The notes under the pieces: generated by a model
The model's input: the letters and a program-made list of their open reading frames with translations, nothing else
The model's database searches: none
What the model was told of the DNA's origin: nothing
DNA from: Anaspis maculata
Lineage: Eukaryota > Arthropoda > Insecta > Coleoptera > Scraptiidae
Assembly: GCA_949128115.1 (NCBI GenBank)
Contig: OX421966.1
Location: 38,395,042-38,459,041 of the forward strand
Length of the DNA: 64,000 bases
Reading direction: 5' to 3'
Program-made: the position numbers and the translations under genes
Shown here: positions 42,348 to 51,732 of the stretch, piece by piece
Layout: each line of letters opens with the position of its first letter
Numbering within the stretch: the stretch's first letter is position 1

Positions 42348-42353
42348 TTACCT

Positions 42354-42591
42354 TTTTACGTGTTTGTTTTTGAAAAAGCCTTTTTAAAAAATATTAACTT
42401 TATTAAACTGTGAAATAATTTAATTCGTACAAGTTTTAGAACGTAATAACGGATCGACAATTTATGCGTGCGACGTGCACTCGGTCATGATACAGGAAAT
42501 TGTGTTGTTCGCTAACTGCATGAAGTCGTATATATAAACAGCAGGGTGCTAAGTAAGCAAAACTAATCTTATTCATGACGGGGTCGTAACA
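42354..42591 (-). repeat. 3' LTR of the errantivirus
   Basis: On the minus strand it begins TGTTACGACC and ends ACGTAAAA. A TATA-like box TTTATATATA is at 42538-42529 and an AATAAA signal at 42404-42399. It differs from the 5' LTR at two positions (near 42386 and 42413). Confidence 0.93.
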
Positions 42592-42603
42592 CCTCCCCCT
42601 TTT
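42592..42603 (-). promoter_or_regulatory. polypurine tract (plus-strand primer)
   Basis: AAAAGGGGGAGG on the minus strand lies immediately upstream of the 3' LTR start TGTTAC. This is the position where the plus-strand primer of an LTR element is expected. Confidence 0.85.
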
Positions 42604-42846
42604 AGATAGAATTTTATAAAATTAACTGAAAATAAAAATAGAGGTAAATTTTTTCAAAATTCTAAAAATATAAAATTATTGACATAAAAGGTAAGTAAGC
42701 TAAAAACTGAAATAACAAAATCGTTAAGTACTAAAGACTTAAAATTAAAAGATTACAAATTAAAAGAAAGTGTCTTTTAGGGTCACGAGCACTTTTCACT
42801 TCGTATAAGCTCTGCTTTTAAACACTTCGCGCACTGCAAAGTTTGT

Positions 42847-44934
42847 TCACAAGGCTTTTCTTTGCTGCCTCGTTTTTCTTGGGACGGCTGCTGCTTCCAG
42901 AGGCGTCTCTTCAGTTTGTAGTTCGAGTGTCGGTTGCAACTCGATGTTCCACTGGTGAATAGATGTTCTACGGTGTGGTTTTGGATTGATATTGCAAAAG
43001 TTATAGATTTTTGCACAGCAACCCCTGTCGTCAGGTCTGGGGTTGTTAGAAGGTGAACTTTTCATGTAGCCAATGAAGTGGCGGCAACAGCCACATTTAC
43101 AGCAGATGACTGTTACAATTATTATAACAAAGATGGTCAGGGTCCAGATGGTGGATGCGCTGAGGTACTTTGTTGCGAAGGGCTCTTGATTTAACGTTTG
43201 AGTTCTTCTTCAAGCTCGCGTTTGTGAGCGGCGACATTTAAGTCGTCCAAGTTGAACTGGTTGATTTTAAGTGGTTTTAAATGGAACTCTTCTTTTGATG
43301 TTTGTTCCTCGCAGCATTCGAATGGAATTTGAGGGATGAAGTTCTCTTCTGTATAGTTGGAAGTTTGTTCTTCTTTAGCATATAGTTGATAAATGCCAGT
43401 ATATGCATTACACCGTTTTTGTAACGTGATGAGTTTGTTGCCCTCCAGAAGTTTGGTGGTTGTACCTTGATTAGGGCAGGTGTAGGTAATTGCCAACTTT
43501 GATGGTAGGACTAGTAACCATTGGTTCTTGCCGATGTACTGAATTTTATGGTTGATTACATTCATAATTAGTGGCTTGCATTTGTCGGAGTTTTGGAGTG
43601 TCGTGATGAGGATGACCTCACATGGTCCTTGGGTCGAGTCAAGAGGAATTAAATCTTGACACATGGCGGTTCTGTCGTCCATTTCTTGGCAAGTGTCGAG
43701 GTCATGGATCTTGATGTAAGTTCTCTTATCTTTTGATAATGCTATCATCTTTGATTCGGGGATGATAGTATGGAAAAGGTTTGTAGAAGGATCTTTGGTT
43801 GGTACAGAGTAGAGATGGTAAAGGTCGAAGGTATCCTGATTTATTAAAGGTATTATTATTACAAATATTAACCTGTTTTTTGTCTGAAATGCTTGAAGTT
43901 TAAAAAGATTTAATAACTGGGGAAGATTTTCCAAAGTGGGTTTGAATGGTAAGTTATTTCGCGTTAGATGTCTATTGATGTCTATCAATTCGCTGAGTAA
44001 ATTTCTAGGTTTAATTATCGATGGGTGGATTATTTTTAATTTCGCAAAGGTTAAACTATTGACTATATCAGTAAGTTCTTCTGAAATTAATGTGAATGAT
44101 TCTAGAAGTTGTTCACAATTATTCATCAATTTTAATTGATGCTCAAAATATTTTTGACTCCCAAAAAGGGTTTTAATTTCGTTTTCTATTACTTTCATAT
44201 CTTCGTTGAATGTTTGTTCGTCAATTTGTAATTTTCTAATCGTTTCGTTAAAATTTCGAATGGTACTTGTTGTGACTTTAATTTGGTCTTTAATTAATGG
44301 TGCTATTCTGTAAAAAATAACATTCCATAAACGCTCTGTTATGTAAAAATTCGGGTCGGCCATTGGCTGTTGCCTAGGAAATAACAACGTAACAGAGCCT
44401 TTATGGAATGTAATTTTTTAGAGAATCGCACCATAAGTTTTGAATTTCTGAATCGTCTCTTTCTAATTTGTCTATACATTTGCTAAAATATTCTCCGTCG
44501 GAGGCATCTAGATTTCCTGTTATAAATTTCCATACGGTTCCAACACCGTTTGCAAGTCCTCGTCTTACTCGGATTGTTTCGAATTTAATTTCTGTTAACA
44601 TATTATCGATTTTATTTGAAATCGCTTTTAGAATATCAAGATGGGGTTTTATCGTAAGGGAAAAAGTTCGAAATCTTACATTTTCATCGTGTTCATCTTT
44701 CAAAAGTACAGTTGTTAGGGTATTTAAAATTTGCAAATTATGTTCGTACGTTTCTTGTAAGTGATTAATGTCTTTATACACTACTAGTTTCCAAATATCT
44801 GAAGTTATTTTTATTTCTCTCTCTTTTTCGTAATATAGTCCTATGGTATTGTTTAGGTCTTTAATTTGGATATTGGAATAAGAAAAATTAATTAGGAATA
44901 GGAAAATAAAGATTTTAGATGGAGTCTTGTCCAT
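42847..44934 (-). pseudogene. env: env: baculovirus-F-like fusion glycoprotein, interrupted
   Basis: The N-terminal part (44934-44434) starts with a signal peptide (KIFIFLFLINFSYS). It contains a furin-type site RVRR followed at once by the fusion-peptide segment GLANGVGTVWKFITG, near residues 130-145, as in insect errantivirus and baculovirus F proteins. A 136-bp MITE (44433-44298) then breaks the frame. The ectodomain continues from 44297 to 43191. The membrane anchor (TIWTLTIFVIIIVTVICC, about 43140-43090) and a short tail follow in another frame, to about 42847. There are thus at least two breaks: the MITE and a frameshift close to 43195. The glycoprotein would act at the virion surface in membrane fusion. 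A 1.7-kb segment separates it from pol, where most relatives have none. Confidence 0.88.
44298..44433. mobile_element. 136-bp Harbinger-like MITE inside env (copy 1)
   Basis: The ends TGGTGCTATTCTGTAAAAAA and its partner TGGTGCGATTCTCTAAAAAA (reverse) form terminal repeats of about 45 bp. TAA flanks both sides (44295-44297, 44434-44436), a 3-bp duplication typical of PIF/Harbinger. A second copy of the same length is at 60634-60769. The insertion into young viral DNA dates it as recent. Confidence 0.88.
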
Positions 44935-46636
44935 GATTGATCTGTAACAATTATTTGTTCACAGATGACTAGATAAAACAATAAAGTTCTTAATTATGAA
45001 ATTAGCTGATACGATAAACCAACCTAGGAATTATCGCTAACACTACTAAATTCGTACTATAATTGAATTTTCGGTAAAGCCGAAGGATTTGACAGTCTGA
45101 ATCCTAAGATGTTATTCAGATGACAGGGACAATTTGGTGACTTCCAAAATTGTATATCAGAGCAAATCTGAATTTGACCGCAATAAAAATTAAAATGTTT
45201 TCCGTGAGGCGGGGGTTTGGCGGTTAATAAACCCAGCAGTTTTACAGGGAATAGAATTATGTGTATATAACATGGACCTGTACTTAAACTGGACTTATAA
45301 TACCGTATATCGCCATGACTCCAGTAGAATGCCGACATTATCGTTATCCCTAGGGACTTTCATTTTCCACAATTAATATTGACCGTTCTGCTACGATGAC
45401 TTTTCTCTGATGGCGACATGACATCGCAGTGTAAAGTTTAGGTTAGGTGTCAAAATGACATTTTCAAATTTGCTTTCGAGGCATAGCCGTTTTTTTTCGG
45501 TCGCTTGCAGCGTTTTGTACGTACATGTGTTCATAGGTTCCGGTAATTCAATAGAAGGGACGATGTTCCGCGTCTAAAATTGTTAACTGAAGTGTGTTGA
45601 ATACACGGTGTGCTGTTGGGCACTAGGCCGTTTGGCTTTTTTGTTTATGTTCCCCAATGGCTGGCCGTTGTTTGTGTTTTTCTGTATTCTGTAACGAAAT
45701 AGTAGAATTTCATTCAATAATTGATTGACGGCAATCTTACTTGTGAAAAGAAAACACTCTCAAGGCCCGAGCTGTGTGGTCCAGTAGGAAGTACCTAGCT
45801 GTGGTTTGTGCTGCCGAAATCATAGTGCTTGCGCCCCTTCTACACCGTGCATTTTTTTTCGCAGAACTACTGATAATAAGTAATGAAATCCACAGAATAT
45901 CCTTATTAAACGGATTAGGGAGTTATAAAACACACCAAATTCGAATTCGACACCACAAATCCGGAAACTTCCCACGTTGAAAAAAACGAAACTGTAAAAA
46001 TGACGTTTCTGGTGCAGGGATCACGCCCTCCTTGGATCACGCTTTCTGGTGCAAAACTGATAAATCGCAACCGTGATCCCTGATCGCAACTGCGTTGATT
46101 TTGAACTTTTGAAGCAACCTTCGATAAATTCGAAAGACAGTGACTCTCAAACTTCATGACTGTTTCAACTTGCGAACTTGCAATGAGTTCTTCGAAACGA
46201 AATAAACCTGATGGCTACTTTCGAAGTAAAAAACATATTATTGTAAATTGAATCAGTTATTATAAAATAATATTATATCCATAAATATTTATAGTACAAA
46301 ATGTGCCGATGCAAGTTGCAGATTTTCTATAATCTTTTGAGAACTTCTGTTATGATAACGATAATGGTAGCGCCCCTGTGGCGTCATTTGTTGTTTGGTC
46401 GGGTAGGGTGATCAGCAGTCCATTTTAAATACAAGTCCATGGTATATAATCATAATTATGAGGAAAAAGGTGTTCTTTGAACATAATGGTTGACGTCTGC
46501 CAAACGTCGTCAGAGTTTTTCAAAAATTCTTGTATTAAGTCCTATTTAGTCGCCTTTTACGACACGTATTTGGATTTACGTCTGCTAACATTTATTCTTA
46601 AAGGTCCCAAAACAGCAGGGATTTTTTGTTAAATAC
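44935..46636. other. unexplained 1.7-kb segment between pol and env
   Basis: Pol ends at 46637 and env starts at 44934. Related elements place env directly after, or overlapping, pol. The segment has no long frame on either strand and no viral motif. It contains host-looking stretches (TTTAGGTTAGGTGTC near 45438) and a direct repeat of TGATCCCT-like blocks near 46015-46085. It may be a captured or inserted piece, but I could not define ends or a target duplication. Confidence 0.5.
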
Positions 46637-48784
46637 CTAGTCTGAGGTATTTGGGTCTTGGTCTTCGTCTGATTCTATATTTGACGGTTTTATCCGGTCA
46701 AAGTTGACAGTCATATATTTATTATTGGAAGTTAGTAGCTCTGCGCAATTCGGAGGTAAGAGTCTGGTTATTTTGTAGGGACCAAGATATGTGGGGGACA
46801 ATTTGGATTGTCTTGATGGTTTTCTTAAAAACACTGATTGACCAAGTTTGTACTGAGGTCTATTTTCTTTTACATGTTTGTCAAAACGTTCCTTTGATTT
46901 TTGTTTGGAACTATCGATATTGGAAATGACTTTTTTGTTAACATATTGTGCGTAATTTCTCATGAGTCTCTGGTAATCATCTTGAAGTTCTGCTTCATTG
47001 GTAAAAATATTATCTCTAGATGGATCAATATGTCCAAAAACAATTTCCTGAGGGGTGAATTTGGTTGAAGCTGACTTGCTAAGGTTATATGTTTTTATAG
47101 CGAAAGGTAGTGCGTCAACTACAGGTTTATAAGGATAATCGATGTGGAAACTTCTAATAGAATCCATCAATGTGGCGTGAAAACGTTCCACTTGCCCATT
47201 AGATTGGGGATGATCAGTGGGACTGACAGTTAGTCTAATGTCGTACAATTCGATTAGATTTTTGAACGATTGGTTCATAAATTCGCTTCCGGCATCTACA
47301 TGAATTCGTTGTGGTACAGGGTAGTGTTGGAAGTACAATAATAATTTATCAGTAACGCTTCTTGCTTGTTTGTTAGGAATTGGATAAGCCTGTGCATATT
47401 TTGAAAAGTTATCAACAATTGTCAGAAGATGTAACTGGGGATGTACGTCTAGTGTGTCCATGTTTATGTGTTGGAATGGTCGTTCTGGTGTTTTTGTAAT
47501 TACAAGGGGAAAATCTGTGTTTTGCCTATTAATCTTCGATTGATTACAAGTCTGACACCGTTTTACAAATTCTTCTATATCTGGTTTCATATTGGGCCAT
47601 AAATGTTGTTCACGTATTCTTCGAAATGTTTCATTGATACCTTTATGTAAATTATTCTTTGAGGAATGCCATTTCGACATTATTTCGTTCTTTTCTTCAG
47701 GCGTTAGGTCTTTTTGCAATTTGATTATATCATGGCAAATATGGAATTTGAAAGTATCAGCGTTGAATAAATGACTCAAAATTCTTTTCAATGGTAGGTG
47801 ATTGACCTTGTTCAAATGATATTCTTTAGGTTCTAAATTTTCTTTGATCTCGTAGAGAAGTCTGAATAAATCTTTTTGAGAAAGTCTTGATAAATTGTCT
47901 ACGGGCAATTTGATGAAATAGTATTTTCGATTAGTGACCTTTAAGCTGTTTTTGATAGTCAATGTTTCAGTTAGATTCAAATTTCTTTCTGTAGTACATG
48001 TATCTGCGACATAGGTTGCAATATGGGGTGTATCCTCATTTTCATTATTGGGAATGAATGCTATTATATTTTTGTGGTAAGCAAGTGTCACATAGTCGTT
48101 TGTCTCTTTTATTAAATCAAAATTTATCGAAGGTTGTTTGTTAATAAATCTGTCATATTCGATTTCGAATTCGTAGTCTGGATTTGCATCAAAATCAATT
48201 AAGTCTGGTGTCTCGTTACGATTGATTATTGACTCGTCTTCTTCATCTGAAGATGAAGATGGATTTGCTGTGATTGGATTTATTCTGATACGCGAAAGTG
48301 CATCAGCATTTTTATTTAATTTCCCAGCTTTGTGAATGATCTCATATGTATACTCTTCTAATTTCAGGCGCCATCTTGAAAGGCGTGAACCTGGGTCTTT
48401 GATGCTCTCTTTTTCTTCTAAATTAAGATGATCGAGCCTCAATTGGTTTAAAATATTTTGTTCTCGATCGATATTATTTGAGTGATTAGTAGTGACGTTG
48501 TAGTTATTCACGTTAAAGGTTTCGAAAGGTTCAAGAATTATTTCAGGAAGTTCAACTTCCTTGGTTTCATTGCTTGAGTTCAACATTGTAGTAATAATTT
48601 GGTTATCATTTATCTTTACGATGGAATTAGGAATCTTTACTCCATTGATCTCTAGTTCAGGACATATAAAGGTTGAATCAGCATTATTGTTTGAGAATGA
48701 ATTTATTTTTACTGGTAGTTGAACTACCTCGATCGTTCTAGGCGATATATGAAAAAAATTTTTCAAAGTAGTATTTGGTTCTTC

Positions 48785-49222
48785 GAACTCATAGATATAA
48801 ATTTTAATCCGACTATTATTAAAAATTCCTTTTATCATAGAAAGAACGTGCTTCCAGTTTAAGTTATCAAGACCGCATCCGAGCTTTGGCAGTGCTAATT
48901 CAGCGATTTGATTTTCTTCGCATATAACCCGCAAGTTCATTAATGCTGTGTTGATAGAATCGTACGTGGGTTTATCTTGAAAGCGTTCCTTCGTGATAAG
49001 GTGAAAAATTTCTCGCGTTTCATTTACGCTCGAGAAAAAGGAATAAGCAACTTGTCCTACTATCTTTTGCTGAGCTAGCAACTCGTCGGTATTGTGTGGA
49101 TATTTTATTGCAATTTTTCTTGCTAAACCTTGGCTCATTTTAAAATCTTGAGACACTGCGTGCCCAATTGGAATGTTATTGGGTGCATCTAAAATGTCAC
49201 CTCTTATGAATTCGATTGAAAA
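48785..49222 (-). other. macro domain of TARG1/OARD1 type within pol
   Basis: Pol residues 322-467 have the ADP-ribose-binding macro fold signature: FIRGDILDAP at the start, GHAVSQDFKMSQGLA, HLITKERFQDKPTYDS, ALPKLGCGLDNLNW, and a C-terminal strand IKIYIYEF. The spacing and motifs match human TARG1 (OARD1) along its length. The two catalytic residues of that enzyme, K84 and D125, have counterparts at K399 and D440, also 41 apart. TARG1 removes ADP-ribose from acidic side chains, so enzymatic activity is plausible here. No disabling change is visible. Role in the element is inferred; viral macro domains elsewhere counter host PARP-mediated defence. Confidence 0.88.
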
Positions 49223-49630
49223 TCGATTAGAAAATCCATTTATTGGATTATTATTAGAGAGACTCACGGCGGAGCTCGAAGAATTCCCGAAGGAAGTATT
49301 TGAATGATTCTTATCTGAATCGACCCTAAGGCTATTATTTGCCTCGGAAATATTTATTCTTTGATTCTCTACTTTGAGAGAAGTATTTTTATTAGAAGAT
49401 CCATTTATAGGATTATTATTAGAGAGACTCACGGCGGAGCTCAAAGAATTCCCGAAGGAAGTATTCAAATGATTCTTATCTGAATCGACTCTAAGGCTAT
49501 TATTTGCCTCGGAAATATTTATTCTTTGATTCTCTACTTTGAGAGAAGTATTTTTATTAGAAGATCCATCTATAGGATTATTATTAGAGAGACTCACGGC
49601 GGAGCTCGAATGGTTCCCGAAGGAAGTATT
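49223..49630 (-). repeat. 165-bp tandem repeats coding 55-residue units in pol
   Basis: Two full copies and a 26-codon partial copy (pol residues 186-321) start NTSFGN and include AVSLSNNNPI and KVENQRINISEANNSLRVDS. The DNA copies are nearly identical and keep frame. The partial copy stops exactly where the macro domain begins. Confidence 0.92.
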
Positions 49631-50220
49631 TGATTTTTTAAATGAATTGGTATCGACTTGGATTAAACACTTTGGTTCTATTGCTTTTTTAGCAATTCTA
49701 AGATCCACAGAGGGAGTATGAAATTGTCGATTTTCTTCGTTGATTATACGCGGTTTATGTACCGGGTTTCTTGTATTATTTTTATTAATGGATTCACAAT
49801 GATTTAAAGTAGTGAGAGAAGTACCACCGTTCCTTGCATAGGAAAATAATTGAATTTCAGGATAGTCTTGAATTGAACAAAATAGTTTTCTTTTAGGAAA
49901 ATCGATAACACAATTGAAATTTAAAATGAAATCCATACCCAAAATTCCGTCGAATAATCCAAAGTCGATAGGTGCAACATGCATTGTGTGCGAATTGAAT
50001 TTACCGACTTGGTATTCGTAAACATGACTGGAGAGTACGGGAATATTTTCAATTCCGGTTATATGAATATCTTTGCTTTGGATTTTACTTTCGGGTGAAA
50101 TAATATTTGGGTGAATCAAACTGATAGAGGCACCACTGTCTAAAAGAAGTTCAAAATTATTTTTTGTGTCTAGAATATAAAACATTTTGTGTTGGCTATC
50201 ATTGGACTTTGCATTTAAAA

Positions 50221-51187
50221 TTACATTTCGGACTCGCTCGCGTGCGTCTGGGTTACAGGAGACTGGACGTCCGAGGAATCCAGCTCCGCATCTTCGTTTT
50301 TTGAATAATTTACGCGAGGAGCGGGATTGTTTGAGAAATTATTGTTTGGTCGATTTTGAAAATTACTTTGACCTGAAAAATTTCTATTTTGAGGATTTGC
50401 ATTATTGTGACTCGAATTATTTATTCTTCTGAAGCAATTTACTATTAAATGACCAGGTTTTTTGCAGTAATTGCAGAATTTCGCGTCTGGTCGTGGATTT
50501 GGATTACGAGCATAATTGCTCGGTCCTGCTTGAGGTGAAACATGTTGGTTATGGTAATTCTGCCGTGGAAAGCTTTTAAATGTTTTCGTATTGTTTTGAC
50601 TGCTGCGCGTTGATCTGAGGTATGCAATATTTTCTTCCTCAAGTATGAGTTGGGCGGCTTCACTAATGGATAATGGTTTTTGTGCTCTTATTAATTGACC
50701 TAAGGGGTCATTTAATCCGGCTAATAAAGTTTTCAGTCCGATCTTTTCGTGTGACTCGATTAAAGTGTTTTTATGTAAATGGGTCAATTTCGTCGTCGAG
50801 TCGAACACTCGACCTCAATTTTGTTAATAAATTTTCTATTTTTGTTACGAAGCTTCGCGCTGTTTCAGTCGTTTTTTGGAAAGAATTTGTGAGGTCTCTG
50901 ACGAGAGCTTCGGTATCCCTACAATCGCCAAAGTGGCCTATTAAGAGGGGCCTTATTGCTTCCCAGGTTGTTAGATTCCTCGAGGATATGGAAGTTTCAG
51001 CTTTTCCAGTTAGTTTGGATTTAATTAGGAAAACAAAGACATTTTCTTGTCCTTTTTCGATGTTTTCCGTTGCAAAATTACATGCTTCTATAAAATCATT
51101 CAGTAAGGCTTGTTCGCCATCGAATGAGGGAATTAAATCTTTAAGATCTCTCAAAGAGAGTTGAATCACGTTATCACCTTCAGCCAT
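50221..51187 (-). pseudogene. gag: gag, broken by one frameshift
   Basis: The first frame runs from ATG 51187 to a stop at 50771 (138 codons) and begins MAEGDNVIQLSLRDLKDLIP. The second (50814-50221) continues the capsid region and holds the zinc knuckle CNYCKKPGHLIVNC and a Gln/Asn-rich tail. The two overlap between 50771 and 50814 and need a one-base shift, so a single indel (or a recoding site not otherwise seen) separates them. Gag would form the particle core and bind genomic RNA. It lies 290 nt downstream of the primer site. The downstream end overlaps pol by about 118 nt in the -1 frame. Confidence 0.85.
50296..50302 (-). promoter_or_regulatory. -1 frameshift heptamer A_AAA_AAC at the gag-pol overlap
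   Basis: In the gag frame the codons read TCA AAA AAC, giving the canonical slippery heptamer A AAA AAC inside the 50221-50338 overlap. The pol frame is open from just upstream. This agrees with -1 recoding used by related retroelements. No downstream pseudoknot was modelled. Confidence 0.8.
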
Positions 51188-51475
51188 TTCGAATTATCAC
51201 AGGTAAATAATATAATATCAATACACTAAACAAGATAAAAAGGATATAAAATGGAAAGGGGAATACCCCGAAACAAACAATGATGATTATAAAAATAAGT
51301 AGACTTACTACTTGATGGAAATCGTTGCCGTCGGAGAACTTCAGGACAGGTTCCGCTGGAGCTTCCTTGGTTTGATTACAGATGTAGGCTGCTAGGCTGA
51401 AGTGCTGGAGCACACCACTCAACACTTTTTTACGTATAAAATTTTCAAAAGTTATTTGTGCCAAATGGGCCTAAC

Positions 51476-51493
51476 ATCCTACCGACTGCGCCA
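51476..51493 (-). promoter_or_regulatory. primer-binding site for tRNA-Ser
   Basis: TGGCGCAGTCGGTAGGAT on the minus strand starts one base after the 5' LTR and is complementary to the 3' end of a serine tRNA (acceptor CGACTGCG plus CCA). Serine tRNA is the primer of the Drosophila 17.6/297 group of errantiviruses. Confidence 0.85.
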
Positions 51494-51494
51494 T

Positions 51495-51732
51495 TTTTAC
51501 GTGTTTGTTTTTGAAAAAGCCTTTTTCAAAAATATTAACTTTATTAAACTGTGGAATAATTTAATTCGTACAAGTTTTAGAACGTAATAACGGATCGACA
51601 ATTTATGCGTGCGACGTGCACTCGGTCATGATACAGGAAATTGTGTTGTTCGCTAACTGCATGAAGTCGTATATATAAACAGCAGGGTGCTAAGTAAGCA
51701 AAACTAATCTTATTCATGACGGGGTCGTAACA
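51495..51732 (-). repeat. 5' LTR of the errantivirus
   Basis: It is 238 bp and identical to the 3' LTR except for two substitutions. The ends are TGTTAC...GTAAAA. The TATA-like box lies at 51679-51670. The flanking ACCT at 51733-51736 matches 42350-42353. Confidence 0.93.

What the first reader, a model, noticed from the sequence alone, without database searches (positions are those of the whole stretch)
48785..49222. TARG1-type macro domain inside an errantivirus pol polyprotein
Seen: pol residues 322-467 carry a full set of macro-domain motifs (GDILDAP, SQGLA, LITK, KPTY, GCGLD) between the protease and the RT position. The lysine and aspartate equivalent to catalytic K84 and D125 of human TARG1 are kept, with the same 41-residue spacing. 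Known: TARG1/OARD1 hydrolyses ADP-ribose on acidic residues, and macro domains of RNA viruses oppose PARP-based immunity. I know of no description of such a domain in insect errantiviruses, but I cannot search. Inference: the element captured a host ADP-ribosyl hydrolase and uses it against, or to process, ADP-ribosylation in the host cell.
Basis: partly seen in the sequence, partly recalled or inferred. Interest (0 to 1): 0.92.

Follow-up and report, generated by a model that had tools for sequence, protein, structure and literature searches.

The report
ADP-ribose eraser inside insect retroelements
Virus-like jumping genes in what looks like a beetle genome carry, inside their replication proteins, a relative of a cellular enzyme (TARG1) that strips ADP-ribose off proteins and DNA; similar domains sit in several unrelated kinds of jumping gene in the same genome, which suggests that ADP-ribose tagging matters for controlling them.

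Summary
Window 48785-49222 (minus strand) encodes a TARG1-type macro domain inside the pol frame of a gag-pol-env LTR element (42353-51732). The best solved-structure match is human TARG1 (E 8e-26), and the residues equivalent to Lys84 and Asp125 are kept. It is not a one-copy accident. The same genome holds at least eight LTR families (A-H) with such a domain, at three places in pol: protease-macro-RT (A, C, H), RNase H-macro-integrase (B, D, F) and macro-protease (E, G). Two non-LTR (LINE) families carry it upstream of an endonuclease-RT frame, and two more probably do; copies of one lie beside telomeric TCAGG repeats. Macro-less close relatives of E/G and of D/F exist. Lys and Asp are kept in 53 of 54 A, D and F copies read. 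Non-synonymous change is well below synonymous, so the domain is maintained as protein. The host has an expanded set of PARP catalytic frames, ZAP/PARP12-like where compared. Function is inferred: an ADP-ribose eraser travelling with the replication machinery. The host source gene was not found, the number of captures is unresolved, and the window copy lacks RT. Macro-domain ORFs were already reported in fish retroviruses, so the broad idea has precedent.

The parts
42353..51732 (-). LTR element (family A) that holds the domain, LTR to LTR
   Evidence: two 239-nt LTRs, 237/239 identical; gag, pol and env matches between them
51494..51732 (-). 5' LTR
   Evidence: ACC on both outer sides of the element, a possible 3-base target duplication
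51476..51493 (-). primer-binding-site-like stretch directly after the 5' LTR
   Evidence: read; likeness to a tRNA-Ser primer site is recalled, not tested
50221..51187 (-). gag, in two overlapping frames (50771-51187 and 50221-50808)
   Evidence: Retrotrans_gag 8.4e-4 below cut-off; zf-CCHC 0.068, weak
46637..50185 (-). pol frame, 1182 aa
49925..50158 (-). aspartic protease
   Evidence: gag-asp_proteas 5.5e-4, below its cut-off
49226..49633 (-). linker of tandem 165-nt (55-codon) repeats between protease and macro domain
48785..49222 (-). TARG1-type macro domain, residues 322-467 of pol
48395..48404 (-). junction of an in-frame deletion of about 1.25 kb (relative to L033) that removes RT and most of RNase H in this copy; the same junction is in L003
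   Evidence: converted to window coordinates by hand
47531..47701 (-). integrase zinc-binding domain (Integrase_H2C2)
   Evidence: 4.1e-15
47207..47485 (-). integrase core (rve)
   Evidence: 1.3e-13
43191..44934 (-). env (baculovirus F-like), broken into two frames 44404-44934 and 43194-44387
   Evidence: Baculo_F 1.3e-11 and 5.5e-37
42353..42591 (-). 3' LTR

Best explanation
The domain is a captured TARG1/OARD1-type ADP-ribosylhydrolase that gypsy/errantivirus-like elements, and also LINEs, carry as part of the proteins that travel with their RNA and cDNA (Pol in LTR elements, the first frame in LINEs). Shown: domain identity, catalytic dyad, reading frame, low pN/pS, recurrence at several positions. 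Inferred: it is active, and it removes ADP-ribose that host PARPs place on the element's enzymes or on nucleic-acid ends in the reverse-transcription/insertion complex, so that cDNA synthesis and insertion can go on.
For: TARG1-specific match and dyad. Catalytic Lys kept in 31 of 31 and Asp in 30 of 31 family A copies read (31 of the 70 matches), and both in 13 of 13 D and 10 of 10 F copies read. Between families macro pN is 0.28-0.30 against pS 0.78-0.85; within families pN/pS is 0.42 (A), 0.31 (D), 0.54 (F). In 8 of 8 LTR families read it lies in pol beside protease, RT/RNase H or integrase. LINEs I (L073) and J (L085) carry it upstream of endonuclease-RT, with no protease match in the frames scanned; that LINEs have no virion step is general knowledge. 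TARG1 acts on ADP-ribosylated DNA ends and D125A does not (PMC5725667, passages); PARP1 and TARG1 act on telomeric DNA (PMC11102865, abstract and outline).
Against: Family C has AAGSD, H CSGND and LINEs I, J, K GSGRD, GCGRD, GCNRD around the aspartate, so specificity may differ. About half of family A macro matches have no RT match (70 against 33). Close relatives exist without the domain (L060, L061, L062, L065), so it is not essential. Pfam Macro is below cut-off for LINE J (0.0087).
Confidence: 0.55

Rival explanations
1. Counter-defence proper: the domain erases ADP-ribose placed by PARP12/ZAP-like mono-ADP-ribosyltransferases on element RNA-protein particles in the cytoplasm, like macro domains of RNA viruses.
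For: PF00644 gives 16 matches, seven of them in about 300 kb of C4; of eight pieces fetched three were compared, and ZAP is the best solved-structure match of each, with PARP12 close behind. E/G macros are 57% identical while RT is 91%, as an arms race could do. ZAP restricts human retrotransposition (title and abstract start of PMC4441479 in the listing).
Against: I did not search for an antiviral role of insect PARP12-like genes and know of none; macro pN is still far below pS; TARG1 is not the MACROD-type class that I recall for RNA viruses; ZAP itself is catalytically inactive (recalled).
Confidence: 0.27
2. Reader, not eraser: the domain binds ADP-ribose to bring insertion to PARP-marked chromatin or breaks.
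For: Macro domains often only bind and element proteins can carry chromatin tethers (both recalled); a LINE family found beside telomere repeats has it.
Against: The Lys/Asp dyad is kept in the representative of all 11 families with a complete domain, which binding alone should not require; in families A, C, H, E and G it is far from integrase.
Confidence: 0.12
3. Passenger: a host gene piece picked up by chance and carried along without a role.
For: Macro-less relatives exist.
Against: Low pN/pS, conserved dyad, several positions, and open frames (57 of 63 near-full family A matches without a stop).
Confidence: 0.03

Closest known systems
TARG1/OARD1 (C6orf130), ALC1-like class macro domain hydrolase
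   Same: 37-51% identity to the eight LTR-family domains and 36-42% to the three complete LINE domains; same Lys-Asp dyad, and the same 41-residue spacing in the window domain
   Different: free-standing cellular protein in animals; here part of retroelement proteins
Fish epsilon-like endogenous retroviruses with macro-domain ORFs (Basta et al. 2009, seen only as cited in a passage of PMC4977317)
   Same: retroviral element with a captured macro-domain protein
   Different: described there as an additional ORF in a vertebrate retrovirus; macro class and place not checked (paper not held); here TARG1 type inside pol of gypsy-like elements and in LINEs
Retroviral dUTPase (recalled)
   Same: cellular enzyme captured more than once, between RNase H and integrase in some lentiviruses and before protease in betaretroviruses
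   Different: different enzyme; analogy recalled, not tested
Macro domains of RNA viruses (PMC7232374: search listing, abstract start, and a find that gave 0 for retrovir, retrotranspos, MacroD-type and insect)
   Same: virus-borne ADP-ribose erasers against host PARPs
   Different: other viral class; no reverse transcription; MACROD-type by recall
Esterase/PHD domains in ORF1 of CR1/L2 LINEs (PMC4120745, passages)
   Same: accessory enzyme or reader domain shuffled into LINE ORF1
   Different: the terms macro and ADP do not occur in that paper's main text

Membership tests
TARG1/ALC1-like hydrolase | sequence closer to TARG1 than to MACROD-type | tested here: met
   5 of 7 solved-structure sequences matched are TARG1, none named MACROD
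TARG1/ALC1-like hydrolase | catalytic Lys84 and Asp125 equivalents | tested here: met
   K78 and D119, invariant in 9 of 9 rows, human TARG1 included
TARG1/ALC1-like hydrolase | ADP-ribosylhydrolase activity | not testable with these tools
   needs enzymology
TARG1/ALC1-like hydrolase | ALC1-like fold by structure | not tested
   structure prediction switched off
Errantivirus (gypsy group) | LTRs, gag-pol-env order, PR-RT-RH-IN order | tested here: met
   window: (RT absent in this copy); protease, RT and RNase H in family copy L033
Errantivirus (gypsy group) | env of baculovirus F type | tested here: met
   PF12259 5.5e-37
Errantivirus (gypsy group) | RT placed among named errantiviruses in a tree | not tested
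   only elements of this genome were compared
Errantivirus (gypsy group), families E and G | env present | not tested
   their RT-RH lies in a distant clade, 100/100; their env side was not fetched
Host OARD1 as source | host gene nearer to the element domain than human TARG1 | tested here: inconclusive
   no host OARD1 found; the lists are capped at 150 scored places and filled by elements, and 150 of 241 candidates were scored; L034 and L035 look like MACROD-type genes by eye

The most novel reading that the evidence does not exclude
In one insect genome, LTR and non-LTR retroelements took up TARG1-type ADP-ribose erasers several times and at different places, because host ADP-ribosylation (an expanded PARP12/ZAP-like set and/or PARP1-type enzymes acting on cDNA ends and telomeres) is a general barrier to retrotransposition.
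Probability: 0.35. Interest if true: 0.93.

Novelty: new variant of a known kind. Interest (0 to 1): 0.85.

Why it matters
Whether ADP-ribosylation restrains retroelements in insects is open, as far as I know. A conserved eraser in the Pol of eight LTR families and in LINEs of one genome makes that testable: the elements themselves point to the modification. The with/without pairs (E/G against L060-L062; D/F against L065) are natural contrasts. Its presence in a LINE found beside telomeric repeats meets the independent finding that human telomeric DNA is ADP-ribosylated by PARP1 and cleared by TARG1 (PMC11102865, abstract).

Tried and rejected
Chance match or single insertion of a host exon: rejected.

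Neutral passenger: disfavoured by pN/pS and dyad conservation.

One capture against several: not resolved. RT-RH tree: A is nested among families with the other position, branches starred. Macro tree: E+G 98/97, C+H 97/97, D+F 85/85, LINEs 100/98; one clade of all eight LTR domains is not rejected (p-AU 0.139), nor A+C+H (0.186), A+D+F (0.30) or B+D+F (0.222). Human TARG1 falls among the LTR domains without support once LINEs are included; the weak split (85/87) did not hold.

Host OARD1: not found in three searches. Protein database: 19 candidates, none at E<=0.001; whether it holds eukaryote proteins was not checked. Bacterial and archaeal genome contigs: 85 pattern matches, none a relative. 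Viral contigs: 48 pattern matches, 1 relative (L070, 36%), used as outgroup, long branch.

Literature: searches returned no paper. Searches returned 38, 483, 109 and 408 papers, of which only the 20, 20, 20 and 15 listed were seen, as listings; none of those titles or abstract starts tells of a macro domain in an insect or LTR element. One search returned one paper, the fish ERV review. Passages: PMC6338049 on accessory domains has 'macro' only in macrophage; PMC8672886 on zebrafish ERVs has it only in macroevolution; PMC12992720 and PMC13172572 on insect ERVs hold neither 'macro domain' nor 'macrodomain'. Only open-licence papers are held.

Synonymous sites between families are saturated, so no dN/dS ratio and no dating beyond LTR identity.

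Full report
What is there. The part of the window that I examined holds one LTR element, 42353-51732, on the minus strand, with LTRs of 239 nt that differ at 2 positions. Pfam finds a weak gag, a weak aspartic protease, integrase (H2C2 and rve) and a baculovirus-F-like env in two pieces. The pol frame is 1182 aa; residues 322-467 are the macro domain. Pfam Macro is only just above cut-off (23.2 against 22 bits), but human TARG1 is matched at 8.2e-26 over residues 3-145. The copy is defective: RT and most of RNase H are gone by an in-frame deletion of about 1.25 kb, gag is in two overlapping frames and env is interrupted. Of seven other copies examined, one (L003) shares the deletion junction and one (L007) has a different deletion, so RT-less copies may have multiplied. 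Over the family, 70 macro matches at >=90% identity stand against 33 RT matches at >=93% (my counts from the lists; each call scored 150 places, of 423 and 6845 candidates; some matches are partial).

How widespread. Of 63 family A matches that span at least 140 of 146 residues, 57 have no stop in the domain (my count). The other 80 matches of that list are families at 38-45% identity with frames up to 1627 aa. Further searches brought more families. I read eight LTR families by Pfam or tblastn. Protease-macro-RT: A, C, H (H by tblastn alone). RNase H-macro-integrase: B, D, F. Macro-protease-RT: E, G. Counts are lower bounds, since at most about 150 places are scored per search.

With and without. 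RT-RNase H tree of 16 rows: E and G (93/94) lie in a clade (100/100) with L060, L061 and L062, in whose fetched pieces tblastn found no macro at E<=1e-4. B, A, F, D and macro-less L065 form another starred clade (100/99), with C+H as its sister. On the best tree presence changes 3 times (3 are forced by starred branches) and position, with four states, 5 times. The tree cannot tell gain from loss. The eight macro-less rows were picked by me from the RT hit lists, so they are not a census.

Non-LTR elements. Seven loci (97-100% identity to the L073 domain) carry a TARG1-type domain (L073: TARG1 3.6e-27) in frames of up to 661 aa; the L073 frame has weak nucleocapsid-like matches near its end and is followed by endonuclease and RT; in L077 the endonuclease was seen; the second frames of the others were not scanned. 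Family J (L085; 11 matches at 52%) has the domain and two CCHC motifs in an 805-aa frame before endonuclease-RT, though Pfam Macro is below cut-off there (0.0087). L079 has endonuclease-RT after a frame with the first part of a domain, and K (L086) shows only a weak endonuclease match. In L075, L076 and L078, three of the nine LINE loci scanned, (CCTGA)n lies upstream of the macro frame; contig C9 begins with the same repeat. Two of the seven I loci are on C7 within 22 kb of its end and one is 13 kb from the start of C9. TCAGG is a known telomere repeat of some beetles (PMC8233369, passages), so the host is probably a beetle; this is inference.

Selection. Between families synonymous sites are saturated (macro pS 0.78-0.85) while macro pN is 0.28-0.30 (E-G, D-F, C-H). 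The macro changes faster than RT in all three pairs (RT pN 0.06-0.16); it is faster than protease in E-G (0.28 against 0.20), slower than protease in C-H (0.30 against 0.39) and slower than integrase in D-F (0.29 against 0.31). Within families: A, 31 copies read, 27 distinct, pN/pS 0.42; one copy has E for the aspartate of the GD motif and one has H for the catalytic aspartate. D 13 copies 0.31 and F 10 copies 0.54. Copies were taken from the hit lists by hand, not at random, and pairwise counts are not independent.

Host context. PF00644 gives 16 matches among 20 candidates, all scored: one strong locus with two matches (181 and 69 bits, called PARP1-type by me without a comparison), the rest weaker, seven of them in C4:72.20-72.50 Mb. 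Eight pieces were fetched and three of those eight (two from C4, one from C7) compared with solved structures: ZAP is best in each, PARP12 close behind. The eight pieces align with each other. This is an expanded PARP set; some frames could be pseudogenes, and one has a stop.

Mechanism. In the eight LTR families the domain is in pol, so it should enter the particle with RT and integrase; in LINEs it is in the first frame, which in other LINEs is the RNA-binding protein (general knowledge). The common setting is the reverse-transcription/insertion complex. TARG1 removes ADP-ribose from Asp/Glu (PMC7050489, passages), from phosphorylated DNA ends (D125A does not; PMC5725667, passages) and at telomeres (PMC11102865, abstract). 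I therefore prefer erasure of PARP marks on element proteins or nucleic-acid ends (0.55) over a purely cytoplasmic counter-defence (0.27); the two overlap. Nothing here measures activity.

Novelty. Captured accessory domains in retroelements are known, and macro-domain ORFs in fish epsilon-like ERVs are reported (PMC4977317, one passage). My searches showed no TARG1-type domain in gypsy-like pol or LINE ORF1, but only part of the longer lists was seen and only open-licence papers are held.

Noticed in passing
L073-L078 (G000 C7, C2, C9, C6), L079 and L085 (C9): LINE families with a TARG1-type domain, upstream of endonuclease-RT where scanned; three loci sit next to TCAGG/CCTGA telomere repeats.
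   Followed up: partly
G000 C4:72198149-72498837 (L106-L109) and other loci: Seven PARP catalytic frames in about 300 kb; two of the four fetched from there were compared and match ZAP best.
   Followed up: partly
window 48395-48404; L003: Same RT deletion junction in two copies; RT-less family A copies may have multiplied with an open pol frame.
   Followed up: partly
window 49226-49633: Tandem 165-nt repeats coding a Ser/Asn-rich linker between protease and macro domain.
   Followed up: no
L030, L064, L073, L085, L086: Loop before the catalytic aspartate differs from GCGLD (AAGSD, CSGND, GSGRD, GCGRD, GCNRD), hinting at changed specificity.
   Followed up: no
L044 and L032: Macro only 57% identical while RT is 91% identical between G and E: fast change or replacement of the domain.
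   Followed up: partly
L034, L035: Host macro genes of MACROD look, L034 apparently with introns; no host OARD1 found.
   Followed up: partly
L070 (IMGVR_UViG_3300033149_001257): A 110-kb viral contig encodes a TARG1-like domain, 36% identical to the query.
   Followed up: no
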